Of a stretch of 8,523 nucleotides of DNA, positions 1 to 8,523 are shown piece after piece. The number at the start of each line of letters is the position of its first letter. Position 1 is the stretch's first letter. The position numbers and the translations under genes were made by a program. Source of the stretch: Deltaproteobacteria bacterium (GTDB lineage: Bacteria > CG2-30-53-67); assembly GCA_013151235.1 (NCBI GenBank), contig JAADIO010000017.1:1-8523 (forward strand), read 5' to 3'. The notes under the pieces were generated by a model that was not told the origin of the DNA, ran no database searches, and was given only the letters and a program-made list of their open reading frames with translations.

Positions 1-530
1 CCGAAGAAGAGGCCCGAAAGAGGGCAATAGAAGAGAAACGGAAGAAAATCGAAGAGGCCCGGCGGGGGAAGGTTCATCCCCCTTACGCGGCCAAGATGTG
101 CGACGCCTGCCATGTCATCCAGAGCCGGGGAGCGATCCCGACGGGTGTCGATTTTGTAACCAAAAAAACAAAGCTCTGCGGCATGTGCCACGACGACAAG
201 TCGCAGGAATCGCTGGCGGAAAGTTACCGGTTTGTCCACGCCCCGGCCCAGTACGGCGCCTGCGTCATGTGCCATAATCCGCATGAATCGCCGAACAAGT
301 TCATGCTACAGACTGCACCGATGGGACGTCTCTGTTTCAGGTGTCACGAGGGCAATCGGATCATGAGGACTCCTGCACATTCCGGCATCGGGAAGGAATC
401 TTGCACGAAATGTCACGATCCGCACGGGAGCAACAGACGTTTCATGCTGAAAGAGACATTGAATCTTCCGAAATCGAAAGACCTTTCGCCGGAAAATGTA
501 AAAAGGGGGAAAGAGAGGAGGCGTGGTTGA
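1..530 (+). CDS. Multihaem c-type cytochrome, doubled-CXXCH type (5' partial, at least 5 haems)
   Basis: The frame is open from base 3 to the TGA at 528-530, so the gene starts before the window; 175 residues are visible and the Met at 96 is internal. Five haem-binding motifs are seen: CDACH (99), CGMCH (177), CVMCH (261), CFRCH (333) and CTKCH (402). Two are followed by 'NPH' or 'DPH', and the 'VHAP..GAC..CHNPH' pattern is typical of the doubled CXXCH motif family, with bis-His ligands likely. Before the first motif lies a strongly charged Glu/Lys/Arg helix (about bases 3-65), probably a coiled coil or rigid linker after an unseen N-terminus. The protein ends in a basic tail. The stop overlaps the beta-barrel start by 4 nt, so translation is probably coupled. 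A periplasmic electron carrier docking on the barrel is inferred from context; export cannot be checked because the N-terminus is missing. Confidence 0.9.
   Translation, partial: EEEARKRAIEEKRKKIEEARRGKVHPPYAAKMCDACHVIQSRGAIPTGVDFVTKKTKLCGMCHDDKSQESLAESYRFVHAPAQYGACVMCHNPHESPNKFMLQTAPMGRLCFRCHEGNRIMRTPAHSGIGKESCTKCHDPHGSNRRFMLKETLNLPKSKDLSPENVKRGKERRRG
516..521 (+). promoter_or_regulatory. Ribosome binding site deciding a TTG start
   Basis: A perfect AGGAGG lies 5 nt upstream of TTG at 527, inside the end of the upstream cytochrome gene. No ATG in the barrel frame lies between here and the signal peptide. This site therefore supports TTG 527 over the far-upstream ATG at 341, which would put a long hydrophilic stretch before the signal sequence. 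Confidence 0.8.
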
Positions 531-2599
531 TTTCCCCGCATGATACCGGTAGAAGAAGACCTGCCGGACTGCTTTTCTTCCTGGCGCTTCTCCTCTCTCT
601 TCTCCTGGCCCCGCCGGGAGGTGGATCTTCGGCCTTTGCATACAGGGTTCCGATCCGCCTTTTCCGGATCACGGGGATGGGCGGTTCACTCGGATTCAGT
701 ACCGGCCTTTCCAACAGTGACCAGGAAAACAAACATACCGGAACGCCCGCTCAATCCACAAACCGCTCTTATTCCGAACATGTCAGCTTGGGATTTTCCG
801 GGTATGTTTATCATCCTTATCTGCTCACTTTCCGCGGGCATACATCCCTGGGCCTGCAGCGAAGCATCAGCAACAGCGGCAGCAATCGGGAGCGAACATT
901 GCGCCACAAAAACCTGCTCTACGACCTTTACATAAAGATACTGAAGCGCAAGTCCCTGAACCTCGCACTCAATTTTAACCGGGACCGAACAATCAACTGG
1001 GGAACCTTCTCGGAAGACCGGATACAAACCAGCACCCTCGAGGAGGCGATACTCTCGTACAAAAACGACGTCTTCCCGTGTACGGTCCGGGCCCGCAAGA
1101 ACAGCAGACGGCAGGAAGCCGATACCACCTATACGGATACATCCCATTCTATATCCGCAACCGGTACCTACAGCAACGATCGTATCGGCACCGCCGATAT
1201 CAGCTATTCGTCAGGACATGCGATGACGGAGAATACGGATATCGATACCCGGGACCATACCTTCTCTTTGCACCATTTTCTCTCCTTCGGCAGGGGAGGG
1301 ACCCGTCTGAGGGATACTTTCATGATGATGGACCGGCGAGGAACAACAAACACCCGTAAGCAGATCCTTTTCTCGACGGGGGTCTCCACACGGCTGTCCA
1401 GCTCTCTCCGGTCCGGCATGGGCTACTCCTTTCACCGGTCAACGCAGATGTCGGATCTGCCCGGGTCGGGAAAATCCCGCTCCACCTCACAGTCCGGTTC
1501 GTGGTCGCTGGGTCATCAACTTTATCGAAGTCTCAGCACCTCCCTCAGTATAAGCGGGAGCAAGTCACGTTACGAAACCGGAAGTTTTTATCAAACAAAA
1601 GAACGGGCGCGTTGGCGCTACAACAAGAAAATCCCGGCCGGGAATTTCCATCTCAGTTATGGTCTGAGTTTCCGGCAACACAGGGAGGACATGGAGGCGG
1701 GCACAAACCGGGTGAACGACGAAAAACACAAATTCGGAGAAAACCCGACGGAACCCGACGTCATCGAACTCCGGTACGATTTCGCCAATACGAAGACCAT
1801 TGAGATTTTCGACGCATCCGGCTTATTCCCGGCCGAAGACAGGGACGGCAACATCATGGCCGAAGGGGTCCACTACGAGGTGCATCAAGATGCAAACGGG
1901 GTGACAAGACTCCAACTCCTTCCTCCATACAACGATCCGGCAAGCCCTGAGAGCCTGATCGGCTATCAGACCCTTACGCTGATATACGAATACCAGGTTC
2001 TCTCCTCTCTCGACTACAATTCATTCGGCCAGGGATACGGCATCGGTTTCAGCCTATGGCAACATCTCGCCTTCGGGTATGGCGCATCGGTCGGTAAGCA
2101 CAAAAAGATACATGGGGTCGATACGGGGAACCGGATCGACTCGACAAGAAGCAAACAATACCGTATCTCGCTGCACTACCCGCATTCCGATACCAGGGCG
2201 GTGCGAAAAGAGTTCCGCTCCAAAAGGGCTCCCCGTGAATCAGAAGGCATTACAGAAAGCATACACTACCGGCTCCCCTACCATATCACCTGGAACATGC
2301 ACGCCGCCTACTCCCGTACGAAGTCCTTCTCGCGGGAGAGCACCAGCTACAGTCGGAGCATCGGAACGGGGATTTCCACTCTGCTGCCATACCGCATTTC
2401 CTGGGGGTTATCGGGGAACTACAGCAATCGAAGTTCAACGAATGATCAGTCGATTTCCTTCAATATCTCCTCACATCTTTCCTGGAGTTACCGCCGGTTC
2501 AACATCCAGCTTAACTATGACCTTTTCCACAGCCGGTACGAGTTCACGGGCACCAGGGAAAAACGTCGTCTTTATCTCAGTGCAACACGCGATTTCTGA
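527..2599 (+). CDS. Outer-membrane beta-barrel protein, putative porin of an electron conduit
   Basis: With the TTG start the product is 690 aa. Residues 1-38 form a signal peptide: a basic 'GRRRP' n-region, a Leu-rich core and a cut after 'SSAFA'. The rest is a long series of alternating polar/hydrophobic, aromatic-rich segments separated by Ser/Thr/Asn/Arg-rich loops, ending in '..YLSATRDF' with a C-terminal Phe, as expected for Bam-assembled barrels. About 650 mature residues would suit a large barrel; my rough estimate is the mid-20s in strands, similar in size to MtrB-type sheaths. A more soluble insert at about residues 403-490 ('TIEIFDASGLF', 'AEGVHYEV', 'LTLIYEYQV') resembles a small beta domain I recall in other uncharacterised barrels, and may be a plug or surface domain. 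There is one Cys in the mature protein and no MtrB-like CXXC. Its position between two multihaem cytochrome genes suggests a cytochrome sheath; another porin or export role is possible. Confidence 0.8.
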   Translation: MISPHDTGRRRPAGLLFFLALLLSLLLAPPGGGSSAFAYRVPIRLFRITGMGGSLGFSTGLSNSDQENKHTGTPAQSTNRSYSEHVSLGFSGYVYHPYLLTFRGHTSLGLQRSISNSGSNRERTLRHKNLLYDLYIKILKRKSLNLALNFNRDRTINWGTFSEDRIQTSTLEEAILSYKNDVFPCTVRARKNSRRQEADTTYTDTSHSISATGTYSNDRIGTADISYSSGHAMTENTDIDTRDHTFSLHHFLSFGRGGTRLRDTFMMMDRRGTTNTRKQILFSTGVSTRLSSSLRSGMGYSFHRSTQMSDLPGSGKSRSTSQSGSWSLGHQLYRSLSTSLSISGSKSRYETGSFYQTKERARWRYNKKIPAGNFHLSYGLSFRQHREDMEAGTNRVNDEKHKFGENPTEPDVIELRYDFANTKTIEIFDASGLFPAEDRDGNIMAEGVHYEVHQDANGVTRLQLLPPYNDPASPESLIGYQTLTLIYEYQVLSSLDYNSFGQGYGIGFSLWQHLAFGYGASVGKHKKIHGVDTGNRIDSTRSKQYRISLHYPHSDTRAVRKEFRSKRAPRESEGITESIHYRLPYHITWNMHAAYSRTKSFSRESTSYSRSIGTGISTLLPYRISWGLSGNYSNRSSTNDQSISFNISSHLSWSYRRFNIQLNYDLFHSRYEFTGTREKRRLYLSATRDF

Positions 2600-2625
2600 C
2601 CCGCCGCCGAAGGAAGGAGCTGTCT

Positions 2626-3714
2626 ATGGATCCTCGCCATATGCTGAAAAAGAACCGGGCCCTGCCAATCCTGTGGGGACTCCTTTTGCCGGTCCTCCTG
2701 TCCTCATTTTCCTGTATTCTTCACAGGGGAGACGCCCCCCCCGCGGAAAAGGCAACCGTCGAGGCACGGGAACGGGTCTGGCCCTGCCCTCCGGCCCCCG
2801 CCCGGATCCGTTATTTGCACTCCATTTCGTTTCCCAATGACCTGCGAAGCAGTCACACCCTGTGGAACCGGATGCTCGCCCTCCTCGCTGGGAAAAATAC
2901 CGTCCGGATGATCCGGCCCTACGGACTCGACATCGACACCGAAGGAAACATGCTCATCACCGACCCGGGCGCACACAGGGTCTATCTTTATGGTACGTCG
3001 GACGGTTCATGCCTCATCTTCCCGAAGACCGGGAAGAAGAGGGTACTCATCACACCCATGGATGCCGCCTTCGACGGCGGAGGAGAGATACTGGTCTCCG
3101 ATTCGGCAGCGGGAGCGGTCTACCGTTTCGACCGTAAAGGACATCTGAAGGAAACGATCGGGACATTCAAACGCCCCACCGGGCTGGATGTAAACCATGA
3201 ATCAAAGCGGCTCTATGTCGTCGACACCCTGGCCCACAGGATCCGGGTCTACGGCCTGAACGGGAAACACCTTTTCGATTTCGGCAAACGGGGTTCCGCC
3301 CATGGCGCATTCAACTACCCGACCCATATCGCCCTCGACAGCGCGGGCCGGGTTTATGTGACCGACGCCATGAACTTCCGGATCCAGGCCTTCACCCCGG
3401 ACGGAAAGTTCCTCTATGCCATCGGCAATAACGGGGACGGTCCCGGCGCTCTTTCCAAACCGAAAGGGGTCGGCCTGGACAGTGACGGGAATCTCTATGT
3501 GGCCGACGCCATCTTCAACAACGTGCAGATCCTGAACCGGAAAGGGGAGCCGCTCCTCTACTTCGGGAAGTATGGGACAAAACCGGGGGAGTTCTCCATG
3601 CCGGCGGATCTTGTGATCGATTCAAAGGACCGGATCTACGTAGCCGATTCCTACAACCGGAGGATCCAGGTATTTCAGTATATCAAGGCGTCGGGAAGAA
3701 GGGTTCTCCCCTGA
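2626..3714 (+). CDS. NHL-repeat six-bladed beta-propeller, probable exported lipoprotein
   Basis: 362 aa. AAGGAG at 2614-2619 sits 6 nt before ATG 2626, so this start is preferred over ATG 2641. The N-terminus has basic residues and a hydrophobic segment (about 12-29) ending in 'SSFSC' with Cys30. This is a possible but non-standard lipobox; a Sec-exported or membrane-anchored form is the alternative. A segment reading 'VWPCPPAPARIRYL' at 51-64 resembles the conserved 'WPpPP..PRI' lead-in known from NHL proteins of cytochrome-rich bacteria. Six NHL repeats follow at about 96-126, 143-172, 183-213, 230-260, 277-307 and 324-352, with typical cores such as 'GLDSDGNLYVADA' and 'VIDSKDRIYVADSYNRRI'. 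They should close a six-bladed propeller. NHL propellers are usually protein-binding scaffolds, and no enzyme active site is evident. Position in the operon suggests a structural or assembly role for the conduit, which is inference. Confidence 0.88.
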   Translation: MDPRHMLKKNRALPILWGLLLPVLLSSFSCILHRGDAPPAEKATVEARERVWPCPPAPARIRYLHSISFPNDLRSSHTLWNRMLALLAGKNTVRMIRPYGLDIDTEGNMLITDPGAHRVYLYGTSDGSCLIFPKTGKKRVLITPMDAAFDGGGEILVSDSAAGAVYRFDRKGHLKETIGTFKRPTGLDVNHESKRLYVVDTLAHRIRVYGLNGKHLFDFGKRGSAHGAFNYPTHIALDSAGRVYVTDAMNFRIQAFTPDGKFLYAIGNNGDGPGALSKPKGVGLDSDGNLYVADAIFNNVQILNRKGEPLLYFGKYGTKPGEFSMPADLVIDSKDRIYVADSYNRRIQVFQYIKASGRRVLP

Positions 3715-3727
3715 CCGGCCGACAGAT

Positions 3728-3733
3728 GGAGGA
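3728..3733 (+). promoter_or_regulatory. Ribosome binding site for the 12-haem cytochrome
   Basis: GGAGGA lies 7 nt before ATG 3741. It overlaps the earlier in-frame ATG at 3726, which has no Shine-Dalgarno sequence of its own. This makes 3741 the better start and gives a compact signal peptide with a basic n-region. Confidence 0.75.
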
Positions 3734-3740
3734 ACTGACA

Positions 3741-5486
3741 ATGAAAACGAAACGAGTATTCCGGACCTTTCGGCAGAAAGTGTTGATTGCACTCTCTCTT
3801 CCTCTTCTGGCACTCTCTCTCACCCCTCCTGCCTTTGCAAACCTGATCCAGGATACAAAACACAATCTTTCCGCGCAGGGTCCCGGCACAATCAAGGCAA
3901 CCTCGGGAAAACGGCTCTGCGTCTTCTGCCATACGCCGCATCATGCTACGGGTCCGCTCCTTTGGAACCGTGACGATCCCACATCGACCTATATCCCTTA
4001 CCAGAGCAGCACGGCGCCGGTTCTTCCCGGTCAGCCGACGGGGGGATCGAGGCTCTGTCTCTCCTGCCACGACGGCACGATTGCGATCGGCGCCGTGGCG
4101 AGCAGTCCGACGGAGATCGAAATGACGCAACGCTTTTTGGACAGTGGCTCCTCGGCCCTCGGAACGGACCTGTCCGACGATCATCCGATCTCGTTTGTCT
4201 ACGACAGTACAATCAACACCTCAAACCCGGAGTACAAGGACCCGGGGCTTCTTATCGACCAGGTCCAGCTCGACCGCAACGGGGAGATGCAGTGCACATC
4301 CTGCCACGACCCGCACGACAATGAGTTCGGCAAATTCCTCGTGGAAGACAATACCGGCTCCGCCATCTGCACGGAATGTCATCAACCGACAGGATGGACC
4401 GCCACCCCTCACGACCTCTCCACCGCAGGCTGGAACGGCAACGGCGCCGACCCCTGGCCCCATACCACCTATACTACCGTTGAAGATAACGGCTGCGAGA
4501 ACTGCCATCGGCCACACACGGCCGGCAGACATGAGCGCATTCTGAATTTTTCAGCGGAGGAAGAAAACTGTCTGCGGTGTCATGACGGCAATGTTGCATC
4601 AACGGACGTCCAGTCCGAGCTTTCAAAGCTCTCCAGTCACCCCGTTGCAAATACGCTCGGAGTCCATGACCCTCTGGAAAATCCGGCAACGATGAACCGG
4701 CATGTAGAATGCGTTGACTGTCACAATCCGCACCAGGCAAACGGTCAGACCGCCACGGCGCCGAATGTCTCCGGGGCGCTGCAGGGAGTAACGGGCGTCA
4801 ACATTTCCGGCCTCAAAGTAACGCCCGCATCTTACCAATACGAGATTTGTTTCAAATGCCACGGCGATACCGATCCGGGCCCGCCTCCGGTAACCCGGCA
4901 GATCCAGGAAGTCAACAAGCGGCTCCAGTTTGACCTCACCAGTCCCTCCTACCACCCAGTGGAGGGTGCCGGGGTCAATACAAATGTCCCAACCCTGATC
5001 GCTCCCTACACCCCGACCACAATAATTTACTGTACGGACTGTCACAACAATGACAGCGGTCCCGGCGGCGGCGGGAACGGCCCGGCCGGGCCGCACGGTT
5101 CACAGTGGCCTTATCTGCTTGAGCGGGAATACGACTTGGCGGACAACACCCTGGAGACACCGAGCACCTATGCCCTATGCTACAAATGTCACAATCGAAC
5201 CCTCCTCCTGCAGACGCCGAGCCCGGACGGTTTTCCGCACGACACCCATGTGCTTCCGGGGACCAACAATAACGGCAACGCCCCCTGTTCAATCTGCCAC
5301 GATCCCCATGGGATCAGTAATTCTCTCGGGAACGGCACGAACAACGCCCACCTGATTAATTTCGACACCACGATCGTAACTCCGGACCCAGGGTCCGGCA
5401 AACTTGAATACGATTCATTGGGGACTTTCCACGTGGAGTGTTACCTCTCCTGCCATAATTATGACCACAGTCCCTCATCCTACTAA
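3741..5486 (+). CDS. Exported 12-haem c-type cytochrome with a C-terminal CX3CH site
   Basis: 581 aa from ATG 3741. A signal peptide spans about 1-33 ('MKTKRVFRTFRQK', hydrophobic core, cut after 'PPAFA'). The mature start 'LIQDTKHNLSAQGPGTIKA..CVFCHTPHH' is typical of a cytochrome c3-like/doubled-CXXCH family of cytochrome-rich bacteria. Eleven CXXCH motifs begin at Cys60, 106, 185, 210, 252, 277, 324, 370, 431, 480 and 516. A twelfth, Cys567, reads CYLSCH (CX3CH). Several are followed by 'PH' (CHTPH, CHDPH, CHRPH, CHNPH), giving extra His for bis-His ligation. That is roughly one haem per 46 mature residues. A Gly/Pro-rich linker lies at about 438-455. There is no lipobox or transmembrane segment, so it is periplasmic or secreted. 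Downstream of the barrel and NHL genes, it is the best candidate for the outer or extracellular electron carrier, possibly filament-forming, though nothing here proves polymerisation. Confidence 0.92.
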   Translation: MKTKRVFRTFRQKVLIALSLPLLALSLTPPAFANLIQDTKHNLSAQGPGTIKATSGKRLCVFCHTPHHATGPLLWNRDDPTSTYIPYQSSTAPVLPGQPTGGSRLCLSCHDGTIAIGAVASSPTEIEMTQRFLDSGSSALGTDLSDDHPISFVYDSTINTSNPEYKDPGLLIDQVQLDRNGEMQCTSCHDPHDNEFGKFLVEDNTGSAICTECHQPTGWTATPHDLSTAGWNGNGADPWPHTTYTTVEDNGCENCHRPHTAGRHERILNFSAEEENCLRCHDGNVASTDVQSELSKLSSHPVANTLGVHDPLENPATMNRHVECVDCHNPHQANGQTATAPNVSGALQGVTGVNISGLKVTPASYQYEICFKCHGDTDPGPPPVTRQIQEVNKRLQFDLTSPSYHPVEGAGVNTNVPTLIAPYTPTTIIYCTDCHNNDSGPGGGGNGPAGPHGSQWPYLLEREYDLADNTLETPSTYALCYKCHNRTLLLQTPSPDGFPHDTHVLPGTNNNGNAPCSICHDPHGISNSLGNGTNNAHLINFDTTIVTPDPGSGKLEYDSLGTFHVECYLSCHNYDHSPSSY

Positions 5487-5490
5487 TTGC

Positions 5491-5497
5491 AAAGGAG
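5491..5497 (+). promoter_or_regulatory. Ribosome binding site for the parvulin-like foldase
   Basis: AAAGGAG lies 7 nt before ATG 5505. It supports this start rather than the in-frame TTG at 5487, which directly abuts the cytochrome stop codon and would have this site inside its own coding region. Confidence 0.75.
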
Positions 5498-5504
5498 TCC
5501 TCTT

Positions 5505-6521
5505 ATGCGCCGTAAAAGAATTATTTCACTTTTAATCCTGCTTTTGATTCCGGTCAGCCTCTTCGCCGCGGAGAACGACCCGGTGGTGGCGCAGGTCAAC
5601 GGAACCCCGATCGCACAGTCGAAGCTCTACGGGGCGTACCAGCGTCTGATTCCCCTCAATATGTTCCACAGGAAGGTCACGTCGGAAGTCAAGAATCGGC
5701 TTCTGCGAAAGGCCCTGCACGAATTGATCGACAAGGAACTCAAACTCCAGGAAGCTCAACGCTTGGGAATCTCCCTGCCGGAAGAAGATCTTGAGACGGC
5801 TGTAAAGGAGCTGATTGCACGTTATCCGAGCCGAGAGGCCTACAGGGCGCGGCTTATGAAGCTGAAGGTGTCAGAAAAAGAGGTCCGGGAGGCCCTCAAG
5901 AGGAGAAAACTTACAGAAAAGGTTTATAAACACGAAGTAACAGACCAGATCCGGGTGGACGAGGCCACAGCCAGGAAATTCTACGACGAGAACAAAAAAC
6001 AGTTTATCCAGCCGGAACAGTTACATCTCCGGAAAATCATCATCAAGGTCCCGGCCCTGTCGACTCCGGAGGTCGTCAAACAACTCAAAGAGAAAGCGAC
6101 AAGGGTCATGAAGGAGATTCGGCAAGGACTTCCTTTCGAGGAGGCTGCAAGGAAATATTCGGATGCAAACAACAAGAATCGTGGTGGCGACATGGGGTTC
6201 ATCCATAAAGGACGGTTCGACCCCAAGATCGAAAAAGAGGTACTTGCCGGAAAACCCGGGCAACTCTTCGGACCGTACAAGCTCTTCGAGGGGTATACCA
6301 TTCTGAAATTGGAAGAGGTGAAACCGGAGCGGCTGGTCCCCTTCGAGGAGATCAAGGATAAGCTGGTTGAAGATCTGATCCGCCGGAAAACGAACGAACG
6401 GAGTGAAGCCTGGATGAAACAGCTCCGCAAAAAGGCCAAAATCAAGATCCTCGACTCCCGACTGATGGAGGAAAAACCAGGGAAAGAGGCCGCCAAGGAC
6501 GCAAAGGGAAACCTCGAATAG
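5505..6521 (+). CDS. Exported SurA/PpiC-like peptidyl-prolyl isomerase-family foldase
   Basis: 338 aa. A Sec signal peptide spans about 1-22 ('MRRKR', hydrophobic core, 'SLFAA'). Residues about 25-150 form a charged helical SurA_N-like chaperone domain opening with 'VVAQVNGTPI'. A single parvulin (PpiC rotamase) domain follows at about 172-272, with 'FEEAARKYSD', 'RGGDMGFI' and 'GQLFGPYKLFEGYTILKL'. A helical segment and a Lys/Glu-rich tail end the protein; a second parvulin domain like that of SurA is absent. Canonical parvulins have His in the 'RHIL' and 'GyHi' positions; by my alignment these are Lys177 ('RKIII') and Thr265 ('GYTIL'), so isomerase activity may be weak and the chaperone role dominant. 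It begins 18 nt after the 12-haem cytochrome gene, which suggests a dedicated periplasmic folding factor for that protein or for the barrel. Confidence 0.9.
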   Translation: MRRKRIISLLILLLIPVSLFAAENDPVVAQVNGTPIAQSKLYGAYQRLIPLNMFHRKVTSEVKNRLLRKALHELIDKELKLQEAQRLGISLPEEDLETAVKELIARYPSREAYRARLMKLKVSEKEVREALKRRKLTEKVYKHEVTDQIRVDEATARKFYDENKKQFIQPEQLHLRKIIIKVPALSTPEVVKQLKEKATRVMKEIRQGLPFEEAARKYSDANNKNRGGDMGFIHKGRFDPKIEKEVLAGKPGQLFGPYKLFEGYTILKLEEVKPERLVPFEEIKDKLVEDLIRRKTNERSEAWMKQLRKKAKIKILDSRLMEEKPGKEAAKDAKGNLE

Positions 6522-6559
6522 GTTTTGATCTTAGCCGGGATGGGAATTGGCAGTTGCAG

Positions 6560-6594
6560 TCCTTGGCGTCCTTTGCGTACTGGGTGAGAGAAAA
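6560..6594 (+). repeat. Dispersed short repeat, copy A
   Basis: This 35-nt unit is built from variants of 'CCTTGGCG' and 'CTTTGCG' and ends in GAGAGAAAA. It matches copy B (6674-6708) at about 28 of 35 positions by eye, without gaps. Its minus strand reads as 'CGCAAAG..CGCCAAG' steps, the pattern behind the spurious 'SRKDAKAQR' peptides seen in many bacterial genomes (recalled, not searched). Confidence 0.7.
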
Positions 6595-6609
6595 GGCCTT
6601 ACAACCCAA

Positions 6610-6640
6610 GGCGCCTCTCGCAGAGGCCGCCAAGGAAGGC
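6610..6640 (-). repeat. Dispersed short repeat, inverted copy with hairpin
   Basis: The + strand stretch CTCTCGCA followed by CGCCAAGG matches the reverse complement of copies A and B. CGCCAAGGA at 6628-6636 is an exact inverted match to 6560-6568. Bases 6610-6631 also fold locally: GGC + GCCTCT pairs with AGAGGC + GCC around a CGC loop, with one bulged C. No T-run follows on either strand, so it is not a standard intrinsic terminator. Pairing of copy A with this copy could form a larger cruciform or RNA stem. Confidence 0.6.
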
Positions 6641-6673
6641 TGGAACAGGTCTTGGTTAAAATATATATGGATC

Positions 6674-6708
6674 TTCTTTGCGCCCTTTGCGTGCTTTGCG
6701 AGAGAAAA
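6674..6708 (+). repeat. Dispersed short repeat, copy B
   Basis: Same orientation as copy A, with the periodic 'TTCTTTGCG', 'CCCTTTGCG', 'TGCTTTGCG' steps and the shared GAGAGAAAA end. It stops 9 nt before the glycosyltransferase start codon, so the purine-rich end of the repeat occupies the place of that gene's ribosome binding site. Confidence 0.7.
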
Positions 6709-6717
6709 AGAGTTTGA

Positions 6718-8325
6718 ATGAAAACCTCCCGATTGCAAATCCTCCTGCTCCTCCTGCTCCTTACTGGAATCGCCCTCATCCGTTACCATCTGGCCGGTCT
6801 ACCTCTGGAACGGGACGAGGGAGAGTACGCCTACATGGGGCAGTTGATCCTCGAGGGAATCCCTCCATACAGCCTGGTCTATAACATGAAGTTCCCCGGC
6901 ATCTACGTTATTTATGCCGGGATTATGGCTCTCTTCGGTCAAACGCCCTTCGGAATTCATATAGGGCTCCTTCTTTTCAATGCGGCGACCCTCTTTCTTC
7001 TCTATCTCCTCGCCCGAAAGCTTCTCTCTCCCTGGGCGGGTCTTGCCACAGCAGCGGCCTTCGCCGTCCTCTCCCTCAGTCCATCAGTCCAGGGGATGGT
7101 AAGTCATGCGGAACAGTTTGTCCTCCTGCCCACCACAGGGGGAATAATCCTCCTGCTTGCCGGGTTGGAACAGCAACGATCCCGCCGGCTCCTCTTTCTC
7201 TCCGGCCTTTGCCTCGGGATCGCCCTCATGATCATACAGCTCGCTGTCCCGCTGCTCCTCTTCGGCGGGGTCTGGATCTTTCTGGATGATCTTTTCCGGG
7301 GACAGGCACGGATCAGGGAAACAACTCCGAAGCTTCTTCTCTTCGGCGCCGGGGCCGTGATCCCTTACGGGATTACCTGCCTGATCTTCTACCGCCTCGG
7401 CCTTTTCGACGCATTCTGGTTCTGGACGATAACCTATGCGCGGACATACGTGGGACAGGTGCCGTTGGACGCTGCATGGCATCTCTTCCGGGGCAGGGCC
7501 GTCTCGATCCTTCATGCTTCGACCGGAATCTGGCTGCTGGCCGCCCTCGGTCTGATCGTCCTCTTCAGGAAAAAAAACAGGTCTCGTGCTCCCTTCGCCG
7601 TCACCTTCCTCCTCTTCTCATTTTTCGCCATCTGTCCGGGCCTCTACTTCCGGCCCCACTACTTCGTCCTGATGATCCCCGCAGTTGCCCTCTGTGCAGG
7701 ATCCGGAGCGGAAGAACTCGGGCGGTTCATTGAACGAATCGGAGGAAACGGGATACTTGCAGGGACTCTGGCCGGGGTCGTCGTTGCAGGCGCATGCATC
7801 TCCCCCTTCGTGCGGCAACGTGATCTCTATTTCCGGATGACCCCGACGGAAGTTTCCCGCGCAGTCTATTCATTGAATCCCTTCCCTGAATCGGTTGAGA
7901 TCGCCCGTTATATACGGGAACACTCCTCTCCGGACGACCAGATTGCCGTCCTGGGATCGGAACCGCAAATCTGTTTCTACAGTCACCGGCATTCCGCTAC
8001 AGGGCATATATACATGTACCCGCTCATGGAAAACCAGCCTTTTGCCGACAGAATGCAGCAGGATACGATCCGGGAAATCATGAAGGCCAAGCCACGTTTT
8101 CTGGTCTATGTGGCCATTCCCGCGTCGTGGCTCATACGTCCGAAATCCTCCCGACGGATCTTCCGCTGGTTCCATAATTACAGTGACCGCTATTACCATG
8201 TGGACGGTTTGGTTGAACTCTTTCCCGGCCGGCCGAGTATCTATCTCTGGGGGACGGCGGCTTCGACGGTACGACCGGCTTCCCGACTCTGGATCTACCT
8301 GCTGGAACGAAACGGGACAAGTTGA
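6718..8325 (+). CDS. GT-C membrane glycosyltransferase (GT39/PMT_2, ArnT-like)
   Basis: 535 aa integral membrane protein. A first transmembrane helix (about 7-22) leads into an extracytoplasmic loop with 'LERDEGEYAYMGQLIL', where Asp33-Glu34 match the acidic catalytic motif of GT-C enzymes, then 'GIPPYSLVYNMKFPG'. Further hydrophobic helices lie at about 61-75, 80-99, 106-122, 135-150, 157-190, 205-229, 262-284, 291-309, 314-328 and 345-363. 'FRPHYFVLMIP' (311-321) is a conserved-looking segment of this subfamily. A soluble C-terminal domain (about 385-535, 'EIARYIREHSSPDDQIAVLGSEP') should face the periplasm. Such enzymes move a sugar from a polyprenyl-phosphate donor to lipid A, a lipid-linked glycan or a protein; the acceptor cannot be told. 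ATG 6718 fits the signal-anchor helix, but only a weak purine-rich SD (AGAAAAAGAG) precedes it, made by the upstream repeat. The stop overlaps the next start by 1 nt. Confidence 0.88.
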   Translation: MKTSRLQILLLLLLLTGIALIRYHLAGLPLERDEGEYAYMGQLILEGIPPYSLVYNMKFPGIYVIYAGIMALFGQTPFGIHIGLLLFNAATLFLLYLLARKLLSPWAGLATAAAFAVLSLSPSVQGMVSHAEQFVLLPTTGGIILLLAGLEQQRSRRLLFLSGLCLGIALMIIQLAVPLLLFGGVWIFLDDLFRGQARIRETTPKLLLFGAGAVIPYGITCLIFYRLGLFDAFWFWTITYARTYVGQVPLDAAWHLFRGRAVSILHASTGIWLLAALGLIVLFRKKNRSRAPFAVTFLLFSFFAICPGLYFRPHYFVLMIPAVALCAGSGAEELGRFIERIGGNGILAGTLAGVVVAGACISPFVRQRDLYFRMTPTEVSRAVYSLNPFPESVEIARYIREHSSPDDQIAVLGSEPQICFYSHRHSATGHIYMYPLMENQPFADRMQQDTIREIMKAKPRFLVYVAIPASWLIRPKSSRRIFRWFHNYSDRYYHVDGLVELFPGRPSIYLWGTAASTVRPASRLWIYLLERNGTS

Positions 8326-8523
8326 TGGCCTGGACACCGAAGGGTAAAATCCTCTTCTGGACAGCCATGCTGCTCCTGTCTGTCATCGTCACTTTTCACG
8401 GTCTGCTCCATTGCGGTTTCATCACGTTCGACGATCCGGATTACGTGACGAAGAACCCGATGGTGCAGCAGGGACTGACGTGGGCCGGAGTTCAATGGGC
8501 ATTCACAACAGGAACGGCCGCAA
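8325..8523 (+). CDS. GT-C/TPR-type membrane protein, bacterial TMTC-like (3' partial)
   Basis: ATG at 8325-8327 shares its A with the preceding stop (TGATG), an arrangement typical of translational coupling, and the frame stays open for 66 codons to the window end. A hydrophobic helix spans about residues 9-30. It is followed by 'FITFDDPDYVTKNPMVQQGL' and 'VQWAF', closely resembling the first periplasmic loop of bacterial TMTC-like proteins, which combine a GT-C membrane domain with C-terminal TPR repeats. Asp36-Asp37 sit where the GT-C acidic motif is expected. If complete, the protein should have about ten more helices and a TPR tail downstream. The call rests on the N-terminal loop only. 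Confidence 0.75.
   Translation, partial: MAWTPKGKILFWTAMLLLSVIVTFHGLLHCGFITFDDPDYVTKNPMVQQGLTWAGVQWAFTTGTAA

What the first reader, a model, noticed from the sequence alone, without database searches (positions are those of the whole stretch)
1..6521. Compact five-gene candidate electron conduit: cytochrome, barrel, NHL propeller, 12-haem cytochrome, foldase
The gene order places a sheath-sized barrel between two multihaem cytochromes and adds two non-redox accessory genes with tight spacing (-4, 26, 26 and 18 nt). Porin-cytochrome conduits (MtrCAB, OmbB-OmaB-OmcB, Ext clusters) share the barrel-plus-cytochrome core, but this barrel does not look like MtrB. An NHL propeller plus a foldase suggests a self-contained assembly module. 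It could be a divergent or undescribed conduit type.
Basis: partly seen in the sequence, partly recalled or inferred. Interest (0 to 1): 0.7.

Follow-up and report, generated by a model that had tools for sequence, protein, structure and literature searches.

The report
Uet-type electron conduit with nanowire-headed cytochrome
These genes build a protein wire that carries electrons through the bacterial outer membrane; the type was described in 2022 as 'Uet', but one of its cytochromes begins with the building block of the OmcE nanowire, which may explain how such nanowires are attached to the cell.

Summary
The window starts at a contig end and holds a 5'-truncated 5-haem cytochrome, a large β-barrel, an NHL propeller, a 12-haem cytochrome and a PPIC/SurA foldase, tightly spaced with good ribosome sites.

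The conduit reading is well supported, but 'undescribed' is not. The 12-haem cytochrome is encoded in at least 559 stretches of the searched genomes. In the 80 best loci (about 12 phyla) it is usually beside the same barrel family (70/80; 41/43 with long flanks), NHL genes and an OmcE-like 4-haem cytochrome. This content matches the published Uet (undecaheme electron transfer) complex of Tenderiales. A Tenderiales-type locus is homologous by profile: cytochrome E=3e-92, barrel E=1.5e-11. The window's version is a variant: one 5-haem cytochrome replaces three trihaem ones, and the foldase comes last.

Two points I found stated nowhere in the papers held. The 'undecahaem' subunit carries twelve invariant haem sites. 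Its first 220 residues have the OmcE nanowire fold (2.0 Å over 175 residues) with all four distal histidines, so it could cap an OmcE-type filament and anchor it to the barrel. The barrel (predicted 28-30 strands) has no Pfam family; its nearest solved structure is MtrB, tied with BtuB on the VIA score. No function was tested.

The parts
3..530 (+). 3' part (175 aa, 5 CXXCH) of a c-type cytochrome; in relatives a lipoprotein with signature GCDPxxRHxxLxxFFDGVPP and usually 5 haems
   Evidence: Pfam Paired_CXXCH_1 E=3.5e-27; full-length relatives L013, L014, L015, L016, L017; cut by contig end
517..521 (+). GGAGG ribosome-binding site of the barrel gene
   Evidence: sequence read
527..2599 (+). 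large outer-membrane beta-barrel, UetC-like (690 aa, TTG start), about 28-30 strands with an inserted domain at residues ~405-481
   Evidence: AlphaFold2 pLDDT 88.6; nearest solved structure MtrB 6r2q_B, Foldseek E=3.7e-9, VIA Z 15.7 over 425 residues, tied with BtuB; homologues next to the 12-haem cytochrome in 70 of 80 loci
2614..2619 (+). AAGGAG ribosome-binding site of the NHL gene
2626..3714 (+). NHL beta-propeller lipoprotein (NHL2, UetH/I-like)
   Evidence: Pfam NHL E=6e-31, 4 repeats; conserved directly upstream of the 12-haem cytochrome
3728..3732 (+). GGAGG ribosome-binding site of the 12-haem cytochrome
3741..5486 (+). 12-haem cytochrome (UetJ-like), 11 CXXCH + 1 CX3CH
   Evidence: Alignment of 59 homologues with all 12 haem motifs invariant; AlphaFold2 pLDDT 89.6
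3861..4385 (+). N-terminal OmcE-nanowire module of the 12-haem cytochrome (residues 46-220, haems 1-4)
   Evidence: phmmer to OmcE 7TFS E=1.3e-28; VIA Z 15.1, rmsd 2.0 A over 175 residues; four distal His conserved
4410..5483 (+). 8-haem extension of the 12-haem cytochrome (residues 229-586)
   Evidence: PF22113 MtrC/MtrF-like domain E=4.6e-15; invariant haem motifs
5439..5456 (+). invariant CX3CH motif (C572, C576, H577), the twelfth haem site that a CXXCH count misses
5491..5497 (+). AAAGGAG ribosome-binding site of the foldase gene
5505..6521 (+). periplasmic PPIC/SurA-type peptidyl-prolyl isomerase (UetB-like)
   Evidence: Pfam Rotamase E=4.4e-17, SurA_N_3 E=3.8e-13

Best explanation
The genes encode a variant of the Uet-type trans-outer-membrane electron conduit. 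The roughly 28-30-strand barrel (UetC-like) sits in the outer membrane and sheathes haem protein: the 5-haem lipoprotein cytochrome on the periplasmic side and/or the 8-haem tail of the 12-haem cytochrome (UetJ-like). The OmcE-type head of the 12-haem cytochrome offers the docking face of a nanowire subunit, so that the OmcE-like 4-haem cytochrome encoded upstream (UetA-like) can polymerise from it as an extracellular filament. The two NHL propellers are lipoprotein scaffolds, and the PPIC/SurA protein folds or chaperones barrel and cytochromes in the periplasm. Electrons pass from periplasmic carriers through the 5-haem protein, the 12-haem protein in or at the barrel, and the filament to a solid acceptor, or in reverse. 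Shown: genes, conservation, co-occurrence, homology to OmcE, barrel size (model), homology to a Tenderiales-type Uet locus. Inferred: location of each protein, assembly, docking of filament to head, electron flow and its direction.
For: Gene content corresponds to published Uet: undecaheme UetJ, tetraheme UetA, beta-barrel UetC, PPIase UetB, NHL UetHI (PMC10734462). A locus with that content and an A-PPI-barrel-triheme-NHL-11-haem order (L242; UetA 147 bits, PPI 137 bits) is homologous: UetJ hhalign prob 100, E=2.8e-92; barrel prob 97.4, E=1.5e-11. Co-occurrence: 41/43 (barrel), 40/43 (UetA-like), 39/43 (two NHL genes) in loci with 8 kb on both sides. Barrel-seeded searches lead back to the same cluster: the strong hits G081 and G157, and the eleven Geobacterales barrel hits read out of about 50 strong ones. 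OmcE head: 7TFS is the only significant Foldseek match, TM 0.73 on the target, Z 15.1, with all four OmcE distal His retained. Top structural match of the barrel is MtrB.
Against: No expression, localisation or activity data for this organism. The trihaem UetDEG proteins are absent from this locus. The barrel's link to Tenderiales-type UetC is remote (plain HMM 21 bits with bias 29) and the Uet identity of L242 rests on gene content, not on an accession. MtrB is tied with BtuB on the VIA score (15.7 each). No complex with haems was modelled, so a continuous haem chain through the barrel is untested. A physiological role of cytochrome filaments is itself disputed (PMC11077965).
Confidence: 0.78

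Rival explanations
1. The 12-haem cytochrome is itself a nanowire subunit: it polymerises through its OmcE-type head, and the barrel with the 5-haem lipoprotein is a separate conduit or a secretion channel for it.
For: The N-domain keeps the whole OmcE haem-ligand set and fold; the barrel is wide enough to pass folded protein.
Against: The 8-haem extension occupies the C-terminal face that an OmcE subunit would use for the next subunit, leaving one free interface; a dedicated 4-haem OmcE homologue is encoded beside it in 40 of 43 loci, which would make a second polymer redundant.
Confidence: 0.12
2. The barrel with the cytochromes forms a plain MtrCAB-like conduit without any filament: 12-haem protein as a surface reductase, 5-haem protein as inner plug; the OmcE-like head is only a shared haem-packing domain.
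For: Nearest solved structure of the barrel is MtrB; the 12-haem model aligns weakly with MtrA (Z 6.9 over 236 residues).
Against: The OmcE head scores far higher than MtrA (Z 15.1); the OmcE-like 4-haem gene is nearly always present in the cluster (40 of 43).
Confidence: 0.2
3. A nutrient (TonB-type or LPS-type) outer-membrane transporter that happens to lie near cytochrome genes.
For: BtuB and LptD barrels score close to MtrB.
Against: Constant linkage to the cytochromes across about 12 phyla; no TonB plug or LptD domain found by Pfam; strong barrel homologues examined were all beside the cytochromes.
Confidence: 0.03

Closest known systems
Uet (undecaheme electron transfer) complex of Tenderiales and Gallionella (Eddie et al. 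2022, cited by PMC10734462)
   Same: 11-CXXCH cytochrome, tetrahaem cytochrome, large barrel, NHL propellers, PPIase; homologous UetJ (E=2.8e-92) and barrel (E=1.5e-11) by profile comparison with a Tenderiales-type locus
   Different: 5-haem lipoprotein cytochrome in place of three trihaem cytochromes and a TPR protein; PPIase last, not second; 586-aa UetJ instead of ~800 aa; barrel 690 aa instead of ~590
OmcE cytochrome nanowire of Geobacter sulfurreducens (PDB 7TFS)
   Same: The first 220 residues of the 12-haem protein share sequence, fold and the four distal His; an OmcE-like 4-haem gene belongs to the cluster
   Different: Fused to an 8-haem extension; polymerisation not tested
MtrCAB (PDB 6R2Q)
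   Same: Barrel plus multihaem cytochromes; MtrB is the top-ranked solved structure for the barrel
   Different: No sequence match to MtrB_PioB; no decahaem MtrA; barrel larger (28-30 vs 26 strands) with an inserted domain
OetABI conduit of syntrophic sulfate reducers (PMC10553843)
   Same: Porin, periplasmic and extracellular cytochromes, often next to nanowire-type cytochromes (OmcX, OmcS-like)
   Different: Reference sequences not at hand; the filament cytochromes there are OmcS/OmcX-like, here OmcE-like

Membership tests
Uet complex | UetJ: cytochrome with 11-12 haem motifs homologous to that of Tenderiales-type loci | tested here: met
   hhalign A4 vs A6 prob 100, E=2.8e-92; 11 CXXCH + CX3CH
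Uet complex | UetC: beta-barrel porin homologous to Tenderiales-type UetC | tested here: met
   hhalign A3 vs A5 prob 97.4, E=1.5e-11 over 359 columns; remote, only 21 bits by plain HMM
Uet complex | UetA: extracellular tetrahaem cytochrome in the cluster | tested here: met
   in five relatives of the same phylum directly upstream; in this genome its first part is at the end of contig C63, physical linkage inferred
Uet complex | UetB: peptidyl-prolyl isomerase | tested here: met
   window 5505-6521, Pfam Rotamase; at a different position in the cluster
Uet complex | UetHI: two NHL proteins | tested here: met
   one in the window, the second upstream in relatives; in this genome it would fall in the assembly gap, not found elsewhere
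Uet complex | UetDEG: three trihaem cytochromes | tested here: not met
   a single 5-haem lipoprotein cytochrome stands there; hence filed as a variant, not as a strict member
MtrAB/PioAB | barrel matches MtrB_PioB (PF11854) | tested here: not met
   no hit for the window protein or for 56 homologues; none over cut-off in the genome
MtrAB/PioAB | decahaem DmsE/MtrA-family cytochrome over cut-off | tested here: not met
   63.1 and 47.6 bits against cut-off 192.2; gene 1 is truncated, but relatives have 5 haems
MtrAB/PioAB | MtrB-like fold of the barrel | tested here: inconclusive
   6r2q_B ranks first, but VIA Z 15.7 equals that of BtuB
OmcE nanowire family (N-domain) | OmcE fold and haem-ligand set | tested here: met
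   Z 15.1, rmsd 2.0 A over 175 residues; four CXXCH and four distal His
OmcE nanowire family (N-domain) | polymerisation with His ligation across subunits | not testable with these tools
   needs structure or microscopy
OmbB-OmaB-OmcB / Ext / Oet conduits | barrel homologous to OmbB, ExtB/ExtF/ExtI or OetI | not tested
   reference sequences not available here; in the Geobacteraceae genome G195 only the Uet-type barrel matched profile A3

The most novel reading that the evidence does not exclude
The UetJ-type 12-haem cytochrome is the anchor of cytochrome nanowires: its OmcE-type head is a built-in first filament subunit that accepts the OmcE-like 4-haem cytochrome at one face, while its 8-haem tail, fused where the next subunit would sit, plugs into the barrel, so filament and trans-membrane conduit form one continuous haem chain found across a dozen or more phyla.
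Probability: 0.4. Interest if true: 0.8.

Novelty: new variant of a known kind. Interest (0 to 1): 0.52.

Why it matters
How cytochrome nanowires are anchored in the outer membrane, and where electrons enter them, is named as an open question in a recent review (PMC12307469). A widespread gene cluster that encodes an OmcE-type filament subunit, a barrel, and a cytochrome that fuses an OmcE module to an 8-haem tail gives a concrete, testable candidate. It also extends Uet, known from a few iron- and cathode-oxidising proteobacteria in the papers I could read, to about 12 phyla including metal-reducing Geobacterales, and corrects the haem count of its central cytochrome from 11 to 12.

Tried and rejected
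Genome-collection scan with the single barrel sequence found nothing: the barrel is too divergent (24-28% identity even within the phylum), so the cytochrome was used as bait. Weak barrel matches outside the cluster (E 1e-5 to 1e-9: G122, G141, G047, G086, G090) cover short stretches; the two read are a large unrelated ORF and a flagellar gene, taken as chance. MtrB_PioB was sought in the own genome: only a 13.8-bit sub-cutoff match elsewhere. OmcE of G. sulfurreducens was sought in its order to look at its native neighbourhood, but no genome with that protein is in the sample. The 8-haem extension was not folded alone, so its fold is barely tested; only low Z to MtrA, OcwA and others appeared. 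Eddie et al. 2022 and the OmcE structure paper are not held, so whether they already mention the OmcE-UetA/UetJ link is unknown.
Full report
WHAT IS THERE. The window is a whole contig (C17, 8523 bases) of a 2.62-Mb draft genome that is 99% complete. It lies in a phylum with only eight held genomes. One relative, G007, is the record 'Nitrospirae bacterium CG2_30_70_394': a 3-kb stretch of its contig (L018) is contained letter for letter in L075 of that record, and the contig lengths agree. I therefore infer that the window comes from the phylum named after that genome. Five genes run in one direction: a 5-haem cytochrome cut off by the contig end (3-530), a β-barrel (527-2599), an NHL propeller (2626-3714), a 12-haem cytochrome (3741-5486) and a PPIC/SurA foldase (5505-6521).

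THE CLUSTER IS LARGER. In relatives the order is OmcE-like 4-haem cytochrome, NHL1, 5-haem lipoprotein cytochrome, barrel, NHL2, 12-haem cytochrome and, in this phylum, the foldase. In the window's own genome the start of the 4-haem gene lies at the very end of contig C63. NHL1 is found nowhere else in the assembly. So C63 most likely precedes C17, with about 2 kb missing between them; this is an inference.

CO-OCCURRENCE. A profile scan with the 12-haem cytochrome found 559 related stretches (a lower bound). The best 80 come from records named as about twelve phyla: Nitrospirota, Nitrospinota, Pseudomonadota, Desulfobacterota, Zixibacteria, Bacteroidota including Ignavibacteria, Verrucomicrobiota, Planctomycetota, KSB1, Calditrichota, Acidobacteriota and Neomarinimicrobiota. 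With at least 8 kb on both sides, 41 of 43 loci have the barrel family, 40 the OmcE-like gene, 39 two NHL genes, 34 the lipoprotein cytochrome and 5 a foldase. The reverse search agrees: both strong barrel hits outside the phylum (G081, G157) lie in such clusters, and so do all eleven Geobacterales barrel loci that were read, out of about 50 strong hits in 117 genomes. The foldase is therefore an accessory, not a core part.

THE 12-HAEM CYTOCHROME. All twelve haem motifs, including a CX3CH at the C-terminus, are invariant in 59 homologues, together with at least 14 further histidines. Residues 16-220 match OmcE, the subunit of a Geobacter nanowire: phmmer E=1.3e-28, profile E=8.5e-47. In the predicted structure (pLDDT 89.6) OmcE is the only significant Foldseek match, with Z 15.1 and 2.0 Å over 175 residues. 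The four distal histidines of OmcE (30, 57, 148, 207 in the PDB sequence as numbered here) correspond to 46, 72, 153 and 197. In OmcE one haem is ligated by a histidine of the neighbouring subunit (PMC9473688). The 8-haem tail is fused where the next subunit would follow, so one docking face is left free. That is my reason for proposing a filament anchor; it is an inference from anatomy, and I could not check which histidine crosses the interface.

THE BARREL. It has no Pfam, NCBIfam or PHROG family, nor do its 55 aligned homologues match MtrB_PioB. The model (pLDDT 88.6) shows about 28-30 long strands and an inserted domain at residues 405-481. The top-ranked solved structure is MtrB (Foldseek E=3.7e-9; VIA Z 15.7 over 425 residues, tied with BtuB). 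The barrel evolves much faster than the cytochrome: 13-20% identity to the window sequence across phyla, against 43-56%.

IS IT KNOWN? A paper on Gallionellaceae summarises the Uet complex of Tenderiales as undecaheme UetJ, tetraheme UetA, trihaem UetDEG, PPIase UetB, NHL UetHI and barrel UetC (PMC10734462). I found a gammaproteobacterial locus with that content and order (L242). Its undecahaem protein is homologous to the window's along the length (E=2.8e-92). Its barrel is remotely but credibly homologous (E=1.5e-11), although a plain HMM gave only 21 bits with a composition bias of 29. The window thus carries a Uet-type conduit of a different build: a 5-haem lipoprotein in place of three trihaem proteins, another gene order and a shorter UetJ. 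I file it as a variant because the trihaem feature is not met. The original Uet paper is not held, so I cannot exclude that it already notes the OmcE likeness.

HOW IT LIKELY WORKS. The most likely mechanism is a haem chain from the periplasm (5-haem lipoprotein) through the barrel to the 12-haem cytochrome and on to an OmcE-like filament, with NHL lipoproteins as scaffolds and the foldase for assembly. Direction of flow is open: Tenderiales and Gallionella take electrons up, while Geobacterales, which also carry the cluster, mostly donate them (general knowledge).

VERDICT. The interpretation as a conduit is well supported; 'undescribed type' is not. The most valuable residue is the OmcE-headed 12-haem cytochrome as a candidate nanowire anchor.

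Noticed in passing
window 6718-8325 and 8322-8522; L017 12062-15792: A PMT_2-type glycosyltransferase and the start of a TMTC-like protein follow the cluster; two TMTC-like genes follow it in L017 as well. OmcE and OmcS filaments are glycosylated, so these may modify the cytochromes.
   Followed up: partly
window 6502-6705; G000 C43:9951, C19:13582-13701, C63:8061: The intergenic stretch after the foldase holds short repeats found in other intergenic places of the genome.
   Followed up: no
L013 5582-7310, L015 114-1843, L052 5180-6644, L058 6793-8260: A 10-14-haem cytochrome preceded by a response-regulator gene lies near the cluster in relatives; in the window's genome the pair sits on contig C19.
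   Followed up: no
L077, L093, L112, L119, L126, L139: The lipoprotein cytochrome before the barrel has 11 to 21 haem motifs in several Verrucomicrobiota-type loci instead of 5, perhaps a longer periplasm-spanning wire.
   Followed up: no
L160 9196-11703: An 835-aa reading frame seems to join a barrel-like part with an NHL propeller, between 20-haem and 9-haem cytochromes.
   Followed up: no
L053 6907-12084: A 1725-aa protein with 16 CXXCH in the window's genome (contig C22), preceded by other secreted proteins.
   Followed up: no
L056 and L057 (G001 contigs C146, C26): The sister genome holds two similar copies of NHL2, 12-haem cytochrome and foldase on separate contigs: duplication or strain mixture.
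   Followed up: no
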